DNA from: Fusobacterium sp. JB019
Lineage (GTDB): Bacteria > Fusobacteriota > Fusobacteriia > Fusobacteriales > Fusobacteriaceae
Direction of reading: 5' to 3'
Assembly (NCBI GenBank): GCA_030673965.1
Contig: JAUTCN010000003.1
Location: forward strand, 1 to 64,000
Length of the DNA: 64,000 nt
The position numbers were made by a program, and so were the translations under genes. The stretch's first letter is position 1; each line of letters begins with the position of its first letter. Below the pieces are notes generated by a model. It ran no database searches and had not been told where the DNA came from. It saw only the letters and a list, made by a program, of their open reading frames with translations. Positions 30,680-52,106 of the stretch are shown piece by piece.

Positions 30680-32155
30680 CTAATATTTATAGAATATACT
30701 TCCTCCTATAAATTCTTTTAATATAGAATTTGTAGGAATTAATGATTGATCAACTGTTACAAAACAACTTAACAAATCAGCTAGTTTTTTAGCCTCGTCA
30801 TACTCTGGTGAATCTACTCCTATTTTTATTAATTCTTTTAAAGCAAAAGGTTTTAGAACACACAATTCATAGCTTAAGCTTGAATTAAAAATTTCATCTG
30901 CATCTTCTTGAAAAGGAAATATCCATTTTTCTTCACCTTTTCTTATGGAATGCCACATTGCTAAGGTATCCTCTCCTTGAGTTTTTCTCGAAATGCTATC
31001 CCTTACTATTCTTCTAATTTTTCTTACATCGGTAGTATGAACTCTATTATGCATATCCATATTAATTTGAGTTAAACAACTTATATATATTTTAAATTTA
31101 TTCTCTCTTGGAATATATTTTGTTAACTCATCATTTAGCCCATGTATTCCCTCTATTATTATTATACCACCCTCGGGAAGTTTTACTGTTCTTGTTTTTT
31201 CTTTTCTTTCTCCTGTATTGAAATTATAAAGGGGTAACTTAGTTTCTTTCCCATCAATTAAATCTTTTAAATTTTCATTTAATAATTTTATATCTAAAGC
31301 TTCTATTGTTTCAAAATCTTTTTCTCCATTTTCATCAAGAGGAACATTAGCTCTTCCTATATAGTAATCATCTAATGAAATAGCTAATGTATCTACCCCA
31401 CAAGTTTTTAAGTTAAGTAATAATTTTTTAGAAAAAGTTGTTTTTCCTGATGAAGAAGGACCTGCTATTGTTATTAACTTTACATCTTTTTTTTCAATTA
31501 TTTGATCAGCTATTGAAGCTATTTTTTTATTATGTAAAGTCTCATTTAATAAGATTAATTCTAATATTTCATTATCAAATATTTTTTTATTAATACTTCC
31601 TGCATAACTAATCCCCATTATTTTGGCCCATAAATTACCTTCTTTAAAAGCCTTTGATATTTTAGGAGTGTCATTTATTGGAGCAACTTTCCAATCAAAT
31701 ACTTCCATTGGAGTCTTTAATATAAATCCATTATGATATTTATATATTTGGAAATCTCTAACTATTCCTGTTGATTTCCCAGGGCATATATAAAAATAAT
31801 CCCTATAATCTCCTATCTCAACCTCTTTTATTTTAGACCATCCACAGTTTTCAAGCAACAATTTTATATCTCTTCTTTCAATAGCTTTTGCCTTTAATTT
31901 TAAATCATCACTATCCTCTGTTATTAAATTTATTGGTATATCCTTTTCTACTATTTCATCCATTCTGTTATGAATTTTTTCGTAGTCTTCTTCCTGCAAA
32001 ACAACTATTTCTTCTTTATCATAAACTTCTCCATAAGAACCATTATTTAAGGAGTTTTGTAATTCTACCTCATATTCTGGATATAAATCTTTTACGGCTT
32101 TTAAAAAAACTAATTTCGTTGTTTCGTATTGTCTACCTTCTATCACTTGTTTCAT
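30680..32155 (-). CDS. Nucleoside (uridine-type) kinase with N-terminal TGS/ThrRS-like domain
   Basis: A 491-residue protein. Residues ~1-190 resemble the TGS and second-additional domains of threonyl-tRNA synthetase. Residues ~225-430 are a uridine/phosphoribulokinase-like P-loop kinase with Walker A GPSSSGKTT (232-240), SLDDYYIGR (~260-268) and IIIEGIHGLND (~325-335). This architecture is known from Thermotoga and many Firmicutes, where it phosphorylates pyrimidine nucleosides. The ThrRS-like part lacks the catalytic aminoacylation domain. Its own good promoter is at 32203-32231. The ATG follows GAGGTGG. Substrate preference is inferred from family only. Confidence 0.85.
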   Translation of the reverse strand: MKQVIEGRQYETTKLVFLKAVKDLYPEYEVELQNSLNNGSYGEVYDKEEIVVLQEEDYEKIHNRMDEIVEKDIPINLITEDSDDLKLKAKAIERRDIKLLLENCGWSKIKEVEIGDYRDYFYICPGKSTGIVRDFQIYKYHNGFILKTPMEVFDWKVAPINDTPKISKAFKEGNLWAKIMGISYAGSINKKIFDNEILELILLNETLHNKKIASIADQIIEKKDVKLITIAGPSSSGKTTFSKKLLLNLKTCGVDTLAISLDDYYIGRANVPLDENGEKDFETIEALDIKLLNENLKDLIDGKETKLPLYNFNTGERKEKTRTVKLPEGGIIIIEGIHGLNDELTKYIPRENKFKIYISCLTQINMDMHNRVHTTDVRKIRRIVRDSISRKTQGEDTLAMWHSIRKGEEKWIFPFQEDADEIFNSSLSYELCVLKPFALKELIKIGVDSPEYDEAKKLADLLSCFVTVDQSLIPTNSILKEFIGGSIFYKY

Positions 32156-32202
32156 AAACCACCTCTATAAAATTTATTTTCCTTATTACTAATAATATCC
32201 TT

Positions 32203-32231
32203 ATTTTATCATTTATGTTTTTAAATTTCAA
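32203..32231 (-). promoter_or_regulatory. Promoter of the nucleoside kinase-sppA operon
   Basis: Minus strand: -35 TTGAAA (32226-32231), 17-bp spacer ending in TGA, -10 TAAAAT (32203-32208). It lies downstream of the strong terminator at 32278, so the kinase gene need not depend on the upstream RNA. Confidence 0.65.
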
Positions 32232-32271
32232 TTTTTTCAATACTTTTAATTCTTTTAATTTTATTTTTTTG

Positions 32272-32467
32272 CATAAAAAAAGGGCCGTCTAAGTCGTCAT
32301 CACCTAAACAGCCCTTTACAATATTCCGATCGTACAACTCACCTACCTTTCCTAAGACATATCTACTAACAAAACACATCTATACGTTAACTTCGCCGCT
32401 ATATATTTATCCCATCTTCTGTCATAATTTCTCTTTCTTTGGTAATTCTCATCTATTATTTCATGAC
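32272..32467 (-). ncRNA. Candidate ~195-nt small RNA with own promoter and terminator
   Basis: A transcript predicted from the promoter at 32474-32501 to the terminator at 32278-32317. It has no convincing reading frame; the best is 17 codons without an SD. It begins with a possible 7-bp hairpin (GUCAUGA with UUAUGAC). Its 3' part has unusually high GC for this genome, including an AGGAAAGGUAGGUGAG purine stretch and a CGAUCG palindrome, before the terminator. Length and arrangement suit 6S-like or regulatory RNAs, but I could not match it to any family. A riboswitch-type leader is less likely because the next gene has its own promoter. Confidence 0.5.
32278..32317 (-). terminator. Very strong intrinsic terminator of the candidate small RNA
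   Basis: Minus strand: a 15-bp stem (AAAGGGCUGUUUAGG with CUUAGACGGCCCUUU, G-U pairs allowed), a 9-nt loop and a U7 run. Confidence 0.85.
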
Positions 32468-32473
32468 TGATTC

Positions 32474-32501
32474 ATTATATAGAATTCTAGTCCTCTTTCA
32501 A
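32474..32501 (-). promoter_or_regulatory. Promoter of the candidate small RNA
   Basis: Minus strand: -35 TTGAAA (32496-32501), 16-bp spacer, -10 TATAAT (32474-32479). Confidence 0.6.
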
Positions 32502-32589
32502 AAGAAAAACTAATTTTACAAATAACTACTAATAAAACTAACCATTTCCTAAAATAAGAATTCTCAATTTCTATTTCTGTACCTCTCTT

Positions 32590-32781
32590 CTTCTTTGTTA
32601 CTTTACTTCTTTGTTACTTTACTTCTTTGTTACTTTACTTCTTTGTTACTTTACTTCTTTGTTACTTTACCTCTTTGTTACTTTACCTCTTTGTTACTTT
32701 ACCTCTTTGTTACTTTACCTCTTTGTTACTTTACCTCTTTGTTACTTTACCTCTTTGTTACTTTACCTCTTTGTTACTTTA
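32590..32781. repeat. 16-bp minisatellite, 12 exact-period copies
   Basis: Twelve head-to-tail units. Copies 1-5 are CTTCTTTGTTACTTTA and copies 6-12 CCTCTTTGTTACTTTA, differing by one base; a degenerate 13th (ATTCTATTGTCACTTC-like) follows in phase. The period is not a multiple of three, so all three plus-strand frames stay open by chance and give leucine/tyrosine-rich false reading frames. Copy number is likely to vary between strains. Confidence 0.95.
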
Positions 32782-32905
32782 TTCTATTGTCACTTCCTTG
32801 TTACTTGTGATCTTTAATGGAATAAATATAATATTTATTATTTCATCGGACTCACCTCCAAAATAATCTTTATTTTTTAATCTTTATCCTCCTTCTTGTA
32901 ATACA

Positions 32906-32934
32906 TTTATACCCTATGTTTTTATTTTTGTCAA
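32906..32934 (-). promoter_or_regulatory. Strong promoter reading into the minisatellite
   Basis: Minus strand: -35 TTGACA (32929-32934), 17-bp spacer, -10 TATAAA (32906-32911). About 45 nt further on is GGAGGTGAGTCCG followed by ATG-AAA-TAA, a Shine-Dalgarno with only a minimal frame (GTG to TAA is five codons). The transcript would then cross the minisatellite towards the small-RNA region. Confidence 0.65.
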
Positions 32935-33014
32935 GAATTTTCAATGGTTTTTGTATATAATATTTCTATGCTAAATATACACTATATATATTATTTTTCT
33001 ATAATAAAAAAATA

Positions 33015-33039
33015 TCAGCACCTAGAACCTAGGCGCTGA
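33015..33039 (-). terminator. Terminator of the aminotransferase-DUF1846 operon
   Basis: An 11-bp stem TCAGCGCCTAG / CTAGGTGCTGA on the minus strand (one G-U pair), GTT-type loop, then a T7 run. Confidence 0.85.
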
Positions 33040-33061
33040 CACTAATATTTATTAATTTTTT

Positions 33062-34564
33062 TTATAAACCATTATAATATAAATTTTCACTTGAGAAAAC
33101 TGGATCACAAGTTATTTCGATTCCAATTTTACCCATTAACTGATCATCAGTTTTTCCTAAAATTGTTGTAGAATGAGCTTGACATCCTCTTAATTTATTT
33201 AATTCATTAATAGCTTTTGCAGCTCTTTCATCTGTAACTGCACATATTTTTAATGCTATTAAAACTTCTTCACAATTAAGCTGAGTATTTTTATTTCTGA
33301 AATTATTCATTTTTAATTCAATAATTGGTTTTGTTATTTCTTCAGATATTAAATGAATAGCATCATCTATTCCTGCACAATATTTTATAGCATTTAATAT
33401 TGCTGATGCTGGAGCGCACATTGTTTCAGATGCTTTTCCTGTAATAATTTTTCCATCTTCTAACTCTATCGCCACTGCTGATTTTTCTTCAAAACTATCA
33501 TTTAATTTTGAAAGTCTCTCTCTAGCAGCTACTAAAACTTTTCTATCTTCTTCTTTTAATCCAACTTCTTCCATAATAAGTTTAGCTCTTTCTAAAGATT
33601 TTTGATCAGCATGTCCTTTTTTATAATCACAACCTGTTTTTAAATATCTTCTTATTATTTCTTGATTAGAAGCTTCTCTTACTACAGCATCGTCTACAAT
33701 TCCAAATCCTACTCTATTTACACCCATATCAGTTGGAGATTTATATTCAGACTCTTTTCCTGTAATTTTTTCAATTATTCTTTTTAAAACAGGGAAAGCT
33801 TCAATATCTCTATTATAGTTTACTGATGTTTCACCATATGCTTCTAAATGGAAAGAATCTATTAAATTAACATCTTGTAAATCAACAGTTGCTGATTCAT
33901 AAGCTATATTTAATGGATGCTTTAAAGGTACGTTCCAAACAGGAAATGTTTCAAATTTTGAATATCCTGCTTTTTTCCCTCTTCTATCCTCATGATATAA
34001 TTGACTTAAACAAGTTGCTAGTTTTCCAGAACCTGGTCCTGGAGCTGTAACTACTACAATTGGTTTTGTTGTTTCTATATAAGGATTTTTTCCATATCCT
34101 TCTTCACTAACAATTGTATCAACTTCTGTTGGATAACCCTTTGTAGCTCTATGTTTATAAACTTTAATTCCTCTATGTTCTAATTTATTTATAAATACTT
34201 TTGTCGCTGGTTGATCATCAAATCTTGTAATTACAACACTGTTAACTTGTAAATCATAATTTCTTAAATCATCAATAAGTCTTAATACATCCATGTCATA
34301 TGTAATTCCAAAATCTCCTCTTATTTTATTTCTTTCAATATCTCCTGCATATACACAAATTATTACTTCTACTTTTTCTTTTAGTTTATGTAATAATTTT
34401 ATTTTTGCATTTTCATCAAAACCTGGAAGAACTCTTTTTGCATGTAAATCATAAAATAATTTTCCTCCAAACTCTAAATAAAGTTTATCATAGTTGTTAA
34501 CTCTTTCTAATATAAATTTTGATTGCTCCTCAAGATATTTATTGTGATCAAATCCTATTTTCAT
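33062..34564 (-). CDS. DUF1846 protein
   Basis: A 500-residue member of DUF1846, a conserved family of solved structure but undetermined function in Firmicutes, Fusobacteria and others. Full length, with the characteristic [14 protein letters not shown] start, the [13 protein letters not shown] strand, a nucleotide-binding-like [20 protein letters not shown] segment (~172-191) and a conserved CGAxD-like [10 protein letters not shown] region. It is cytoplasmic with no membrane segment. It lies 17 bp downstream of an aminotransferase and the two share a terminator. The P-loop-like GPGSGK suggests nucleotide or phosphate binding, which is inference. Confidence 0.88.
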
Positions 34565-51978: not shown

Positions 51979-52080
51979 AAAAAATCGATCCCCTGGACTC
52001 TTATATTTTGCCCAGACGGTCGACTAATCTCAAACTATATTCCTTGTGGTCATTTCCACTTATCCGTCAGTTATATAGCT
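51979..52080 (-). promoter_or_regulatory. ZTP/ZMP (pfl-motif) riboswitch with terminator platform
   Basis: On the minus strand the leader holds the pfl-motif aptamer. ACUGACGG (52064-52071) is followed by a GUGG/CCAC hairpin and the 3' conserved element CCGUCUGGGCA (52009-52019). ACGG pairs with CCGU. The 3' element is reused in a terminator hairpin (51986-52022: CUGG with CCAG and flanking pairs) followed by a U-run (51979-51984). ZMP binding would favour the aptamer and stop termination. The aptamer closely resembles, from memory, the crystallised F. ulcerans ZTP riboswitch. Confidence 0.9.
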
Positions 52081-52106
52081 GTTTATTTCTTTCTACCCTT
52101 GCATAG

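What the first reader, a model, noticed from the sequence alone, without database searches (positions are those of the whole stretch)
32272..32501. Unannotated ~195-nt small RNA with its own promoter and strong terminator
A TTGAAA-16-TATAAT promoter and a 15-bp GC-rich terminator with U7 bracket ~195 nt without a credible reading frame, in a 900-bp gap. The downstream nucleoside kinase has a separate promoter, so this is not simply its leader. The 3' portion is richer in G and C than its surroundings, as expected for a structured RNA. Size is compatible with 6S RNA, but I could not establish that fold.
Basis: partly seen in the sequence, partly recalled or inferred. Interest (0 to 1): 0.6.

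Follow-up and report, generated by a model that had tools for sequence, protein, structure and literature searches.

The report
Long fusobacterial RNA with two-codon ORF
The reported small RNA is really the tail end of a much longer, apparently undescribed non-coding RNA gene of Fusobacterium-type bacteria, which starts with an unusually strong ribosome-docking site followed by a reading frame of only one or two sense codons.

Summary
The terminator and the lack of a coding frame are real, but the 195-nt unit is the 3' third of a ~625-nt transcription unit on the minus strand (gene 32934-32275). Its promoter, missed by the finder, is TTGACA-17-TATAAA at 32934-32906; the finder's internal promoter is at chance level and not kept in the ortholog. 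Models of the 5' and 3' ends find the same gene elsewhere: 21 copies of 420-860 bp in 19 genomes (7 of 7 in the window's genus, 10 of 12 and 2 of 2 in two other genera), none seen in the other 77 of 96 Fusobacteriales genomes. None matches Rfam; a 6S-like RNA lies elsewhere. In 19 of 19 copies tested, a Shine-Dalgarno site stronger than nearly all coding genes of the window lies near the 5' end, followed by a start codon and 1-8 sense codons (1-2 in 16 of 21). A second 16S-complementary site often precedes the terminator. In one genus the gene usually sits beside leuS and the rRNA operon. Best reading: a large structured ncRNA stabilised by ribosome docking at a 5' minigene. Expression and function are untested.

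The parts
32275..32934 (-). whole ncRNA gene, promoter -35 to terminator (transcript about 32899 to about 32272)
   Evidence: both ends and body conserved in G002 (81% column identity); 5' and 3' models find 20 further copies
32906..32934 (-). promoter TTGACA (32934-32929), 17-nt spacer, TATAAA (32911-32906)
   Evidence: TTGACA and 17-nt spacing kept in all 18 aligned copies
32848..32859 (-). 5' strong Shine-Dalgarno GGAGGTGAGTCC, complementary to the 16S 3' tail
   Evidence: duplex -19.6 kcal/mol; 55 CDS-like ORFs of the window reach at best -15.2 (first start) or -17.0 (best start)
32838..32846 (-). two-codon minigene ATG AAA TAA
   Evidence: same ATG-AAA-TAA in G002, G024 and G031-G034
32817..32831 (-). 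5' arm of predicted long-range helix (about)
   Evidence: predicted in the single fold and on the W/G002 pair alignment
32401..32415 (-). 3' arm of the same helix (about)
32592..32781 (-). 16-bp tandem repeat, 11.9 copies, inside the RNA body
   Evidence: TRF score 352; absent from G002, which has other repeats there
32474..32501 (-). finder's TTGAAA-16-TATAAT; probably not the promoter of the unit
   Evidence: at chance level, -10 broken in G002
32338..32355 (-). 3' Shine-Dalgarno-like site TTAGGAAAGGTAGGTGAG
   Evidence: -18.4 kcal/mol to the 16S tail; shuffle minima average -12.8
32316..32342 (-). possible 8-codon frame GTG...TAA ending at the terminator
   Evidence: sequence reading; start not conserved in all relatives
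32272..32317 (-). intrinsic terminator and U tract
   Evidence: model R1

Best explanation
A single ~625-nt non-coding RNA gene, one member of an undescribed fusobacterial RNA family, is transcribed on the minus strand from about 32899 to about 32272. Shown by comparison: one conserved promoter; a strong SD plus a frame of 1-8 sense codons near the 5' end; an AT-rich structured body that varies in length; a 3' element; and a terminator. Inferred: 30S/70S ribosomes dock at the 5' SD and at most translate a peptide of two to nine residues. They act as a 5' roadblock that keeps a long, otherwise untranslated RNA stable and abundant (a minigene/STAB-SD type stabiliser). The structured body and 3' domain carry the RNA's function, most likely regulatory and linked to translation or growth.
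For: Two models from opposite ends place hits on the same strand in 18 of 21 copies. G024 and G035-C2 were in neither training set, and both models found them (R3 58.0 and 72.7 bits; R1 at E 0.020 and 0.0078). The 5' SD is -14.4 to -23.5 kcal/mol in 19 of 19 copies. The frame has 1-2 sense codons after the start in 16 of 21 and at most 8 in 21 of 21; shuffles give 0.19 and 0.59. The SD-start unit is duplicated in C14 (four units) and G006 and G004 (two each). Internal helices and the 3' domain in one genus pair at 88-97% with 13 doubly changed pairs, against 36-68% paired when slid. Longest sense ORFs do not exceed the shuffle range. PMC8708949 (passages) reports that binding to a strong SD at a mini-ORF was sufficient to stabilise an mRNA; PMC3997798 (passages) says a ribosome binding site near the 5' end can stabilise long downstream regions.
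Against: No expression data were available. Copies share ancestry, so the mini-ORF count is not 21 independent cases, and three lineages have 4-8 codons. The whole window RNA folds only slightly better than shuffles (z -1.14). No double changes support the 5' hairpin, long-range helix or terminator within the 7-sequence set. The link between the g6 copies and the others rests on the 5' end alone. That docking stabilises this RNA is inference.
Confidence: 0.5

Rival explanations
1. Stand-alone ~195-nt sRNA from the internal TTGAAA-16-TATAAT promoter, as first read (or a 3' product processed from the long RNA).
For: 11 of 12 consensus match; the 195 nt fold well (z -2.7); the 3' element is conserved.
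Against: Promoter-like sites at chance; -10 box broken in the ortholog; the family promoter is conserved upstream.
Confidence: 0.12
2. Dual-function RNA that mainly makes short peptides, notably from the SD-led 3' frame that stops at the terminator.
For: In genus g5 an SD and TTG are followed by frames such as TTG AAC ATA GAA GAG ATA AGA TAG and TTG AGT ATT GAA GAA ATA ATA TAG; changes are largely synonymous and the stop is kept.
Against: No consistent start or frame in G001, G003, G004, G006, G026, G029 or g6; at most 8-9 codons; my reading by eye, no coding statistic run.
Confidence: 0.12
3. Ribosome-sequestering RNA: the sites at both ends hold 30S subunits and tune free ribosomes or 16S availability.
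For: 5' site in 19 of 19 and a 3' site at or below -14 kcal/mol in 12 of 19 copies with little between; leuS upstream in 8 of 11 g5 copies and 16S downstream in 6.
Against: The 3' site is no better than shuffle minima in the other 7 of 19 copies; a plain stabiliser explains the 5' site.
Confidence: 0.15
4. Leader or attenuator of the downstream gene (the kinase here, rRNA in g5).
For: Same strand, upstream of a gene in the window and g5.
Against: Each copy ends in its own terminator; the downstream gene differs between copies and in G005 and G006 is on the opposite strand.
Confidence: 0.05
5. Decayed mRNA or mobile repeat.
For: Different neighbourhoods in g1; internal tandem repeats.
Against: Ends conserved across three genera, synteny in g5, compensatory changes.
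Confidence: 0.03

Closest known systems
Minigene / mini-ORF and STAB-SD 5' stabilisers (axe-txe mg2, LEE mini-ORF, cryIIIA STAB-SD)
   Same: strong SD, in the minigenes with a start and stop after one to a few codons, near an RNA 5' end; ribosome docking proposed to protect the RNA
   Different: those sit in leaders of protein-coding mRNAs; here no coding gene follows within the terminated unit
Large ornate bacterial ncRNAs (OLE, GOLLD, ROOL, raiA)
   Same: several hundred nt (raiA shorter, recalled), structured, own transcription unit
   Different: no Rfam match at gathering or at E up to 5-10; very AT-rich with SD sites at the ends
6S RNA (RF00013)
   Same: length of the finder's 195-nt stretch
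   Different: no match here; 6S-like RNA at another locus
Fusobacterium sRNAs FoxI and FoxJ
   Same: fusobacterial ncRNAs; FoxJ was mistaken for a UTR
   Different: FoxJ is ~156 nt and sigmaE-dependent (PMC11005410, abstract); here a TTGACA/TATAAA promoter; no sequence comparison was made

Membership tests
6S RNA (RF00013) | covariance-model match above gathering | tested here: not met
   no match in the window or at 32150-33080 with E up to 10
6S RNA (RF00013) | no better 6S candidate elsewhere in the genome | tested here: not met
   G000:C8:54960-55142 is 82% identical to a sub-threshold RF00013 match in G005
OLE / GOLLD / ROOL / other Rfam families | covariance-model match | tested here: not met
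   no match, 41 other than rRNA, tRNA, ZTP riboswitch and weak chance hits
this family (fusobacterial double-end RNA) | TTGACA-17-TA promoter followed by strong SD and short frame | tested here: met
   window copy
this family (fusobacterial double-end RNA) | 3' element plus terminator (model R1) | tested here: met
   window copy 81 bits, but it is in the training set
5' minigene / STAB-SD stabiliser | strong SD and mini-ORF near the 5' end | tested here: met
   SD about 40-50 nt from the inferred start, ATG AAA TAA
5' minigene / STAB-SD stabiliser | ribosome occupancy lengthens RNA half-life | not testable with these tools
   needs SD mutants and half-life measurement

The most novel reading that the evidence does not exclude
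A new class of long bacterial ncRNA that works by holding ribosomes: complementary to the 16S 3' tail at both ends, with start-stop minigenes (duplicated in some copies, up to four units), often encoded next to leuS and the rRNA operon, it sequesters or positions 30S subunits and so couples to growth.
Probability: 0.17. Interest if true: 0.85.

Novelty: new variant of a known kind. Interest (0 to 1): 0.62.

Why it matters
If transcribed as predicted, this is a 0.4-0.86 kb structured RNA carried by nearly all sampled members of three Fusobacterium-type genera and absent from Rfam. It would show a minigene/strong-SD device serving a non-coding RNA rather than an mRNA. The design is directly testable: a two-codon frame with nothing to encode, beside an SD stronger than almost any gene's.

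Tried and rejected
Rejected: 6S; leader of the kinase (own terminator, neighbours differ); the motif AGGTGANTCC-ATG alone as family mark. In one search, 17 of 61 genomes matched, and searches showed many of these 24 places to be coding or unrelated. L115 and L117 are leaders before a crotonase-like gene (named by eye) and were not counted. Hits of the g6 RNA in G000:C5 and G008:C11 proved to be coding sequence by eye; the other short hits were not inspected. Weak R3 hits (22.5 bits or less) and most weak R1/R2 hits were not inspected one by one. G025 and G028 (genus g5) gave no convincing copy. A possible pairing of the 5' and 3' SD elements in g6 is not possible in the window copy and was dropped. 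A search for viral copies with two exact patterns found none. The kinase scan of named genomes gave mostly distant relatives and helped only to name one genome. An attempt to place the species through a PDB relative failed, so I cannot say which handle, if any, is F. nucleatum. Rows left out: alignment A3 used 18 of the 19 copies then known (G027 equals G026); A4 and one search used 7 of 11 g5 copies; searches used 19 of 21.

Papers. PMC11005410: abstract, one section, passages. PMC11109978, PMC8632094, PMC12286853, PMC8708949 and PMC3997798: passages only. STAB-SD (Agaisse and Lereclus) and the LEE mini-ORF paper (Lodato et al.) were seen only as reference entries or as cited by others. The 2021 F. 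nucleatum RNA-landscape paper did not appear in the search listings; it is recalled. Searches for earlier descriptions or analogues; none listed this RNA.

Full report
What is at the coordinates. The gap between the kinase gene (30680-32155, minus; uridine-kinase-like, below the NCBIfam cut-off) and the gene at 33062-34564 (minus; NCBIfam hypothetical protein PRK13663) holds a strong minus-strand terminator at 32317-32279 and no protein ORF. The finder's promoter exists as letters. However, promoter-like sites occur at the rate expected in shuffled sequence (14 against 13.9 +/- 3.8). No Rfam family matches the window there.

The unit is longer. A search of 7 genomes of the genus found one ortholog, in G002 (81%, E 4.6e-63), and a second copy in the window's own genome on contig C14 that aligns only over the 3' 79 nt (74%). 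The G002 locus has the same neighbours, and conservation runs across the gap up to a TTGACA-17-TATAAA promoter at window 32934-32906. In G002 the finder's -10 box is TATATG. C14 and the other copies share the upstream promoter and, about 20-60 nt after the inferred start, an element like GGAGGTGANTCC-N-ATG. The inferred transcript is about 625 nt, 32899 to about 32272.

A family. A pattern of promoter plus element found copies in G001, G003, G006, G036 and G037 as well as C14. Its seventh hit, G019, is taken to be chance; it was not inspected, and no later model supported that place. Model R1 (3' element and terminator; trained on six copies of genus g1) and model R2 (5' end; eight copies) were run on 61 Fusobacteriaceae genomes. 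R1 is a terminator-like model with many background hits (38 of 61 genomes at E 0.1), so the weight lies in coincidence with the 5' model on one strand within 1 kb. R3, trained on 18 copies of the 5' end, was run on 96 Fusobacteriales genomes. It separates 21 copies at 29.8 bits or more from everything else at 22.5 bits or less. The 21 copies are: genus g1, 8 copies in 7 of 7 genomes (two in G000); g5, 11 copies in 10 of 12 genomes (two in G035); g6, 2 copies in 2 of 2 genomes. The other 77 of 96 genomes have no convincing copy. R1 supports 18 of the 21; G029, G036 and G037 have terminators that R1 did not report there and that were read by eye. G024 and the second G035 copy were in no training set, and both models found them at consistent distance and strand. 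Genome G004 appears to be the same as a named record, Fusobacterium sp. isolate cluster1_bin.39 (identical hit coordinates); otherwise genera are known only by number. Copies are 420-860 bp from -35 box to terminator.

Anatomy. (1) TTGACA and a 17-nt spacer are kept in all 18 aligned copies, with a spacer ending in (A/T)TGRGG in most. (2) A Shine-Dalgarno site: the duplex with the 16S tail is -14.4 to -23.5 kcal/mol in 19 of 19 copies tested and -19.6 in the window. Among 55 CDS-like ORFs of the window the best is -15.2 at the first start, or -17.0 choosing the best of several starts. The ORF list is mechanical and will contain false ORFs. The copy in C14 is a 12-nt perfect complement of the tail. 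(3) A start codon with 1 sense codon (MK, MF, MG, ME) or 2 (VKH, VKP, LKI) in 16 of 21 copies, and 4-8 in G001, G003, G006, G036 and G037. In shuffles, 19% have 2 or fewer and 59% have 8 or fewer. Copies are related, so these are perhaps seven lineages against three, not 21 trials. (4) The SD-start unit is repeated: four times in C14 and twice in G006 and G004. The window copy instead has a 16-bp repeat, 11.9 copies, at 32592-32781. (5) A second 16S-complementary site lies shortly before the terminator: -18.4 in the window, and -14 or better in 12 of 19 copies. In four g5 copies (G030, G033, G034, G035) it is only -12.3 to -13.0, about the shuffle minimum, and in G006, G031 and G032 no such site passes -11.5. 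(6) In g5 the 3' site leads a short frame (for example TTG AAC ATA GAA GAG ATA AGA TAG) that stops at the terminator and differs mostly at third positions. In several other copies no consistent start exists (read by eye).

Structure. On 7 g5 copies the consensus fold has 107 pairs, 19 with changes on both sides. Taken by helix, three internal helices and the 3' domain are 88-97% paired with 13 doubly changed pairs, against 36-68% paired when the partner strand is slid by 1-3 columns. The 5' hairpin, the long-range helix and the terminator are 99-100% paired but without double changes in this set. The helices were derived from the same alignment, which favours them. In g5 the 5' hairpin loop carries the palindrome GTCTAGAC. 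The window RNA alone folds only modestly better than shuffles (z -1.14); the g6 RNA does better (z -2.27), as does the 3' 195 nt (z -2.7). In the window and G002 a ~15-bp helix joins the stretch after the minigene to the stretch before the 3' domain.

Neighbours. In g5, 8 of 11 copies lie downstream of leuS (identified by TIGR00396 in two of them; in the others by similar sequence, read by eye). Six of these are followed by 16S rRNA in the fetched DNA, in G026 only its first 145 nt at a contig end; in G034 a transposase-like insertion (named by eye) lies between. One G035 copy follows tRNA-Gly, -Ala and -Met genes. In g1 and g6 the surroundings differ.

Mechanism and confidence. That this is one conserved long ncRNA gene is well supported (about 0.9). 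That ribosome docking at the 5' minigene stabilises it is inferred from anatomy plus published cases in mRNA leaders (PMC8708949 and PMC3997798, passages); I give 0.5 for the combined statement. What the body does is unknown; a link to translation or growth is suggested only by the 16S complementarity and the g5 neighbourhood. The boldest reading, a ribosome-holding RNA, is not excluded. No expression data were available, and I could not test F. nucleatum by name.

Noticed in passing
window 52003-52084 (-): ZMP/ZTP riboswitch, 57.8 bits.
   Followed up: no
G000:C8:54960-55142: Likely 6S RNA of this genus: 82% identical to a sub-threshold RF00013 match in G005; one match in each of 7 genomes.
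   Followed up: partly
L115 and L117 (G001:C25, G003:C20): Leader of a crotonase-like gene starts much like the G006 RNA (GTCAAAAAGATAAA in L115, then GGTGATTCCAATG and a 6-8 codon frame in both); perhaps a related minigene leader on a real mRNA.
   Followed up: partly
L207-L210 5' hairpin: Invariant palindrome GTCTAGAC in the 5' hairpin loop of g5 copies (also in G005); could allow RNA dimerisation.
   Followed up: no
L120 and L121: In the G037 copy the 5' GGAA...UCCG and 3' CGGA...UUCC elements are predicted to pair with each other, which would bury both ribosome sites; G036 has similar letters.
   Followed up: partly
window 32592-32781: 16-bp tandem repeat, nearly perfect, 11.9 copies, likely of variable number; the ortholog has unrelated repeats at the same place.
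   Followed up: partly
window 33043-33011 (-): Strong terminator of the upstream gene just before the RNA promoter.
   Followed up: no
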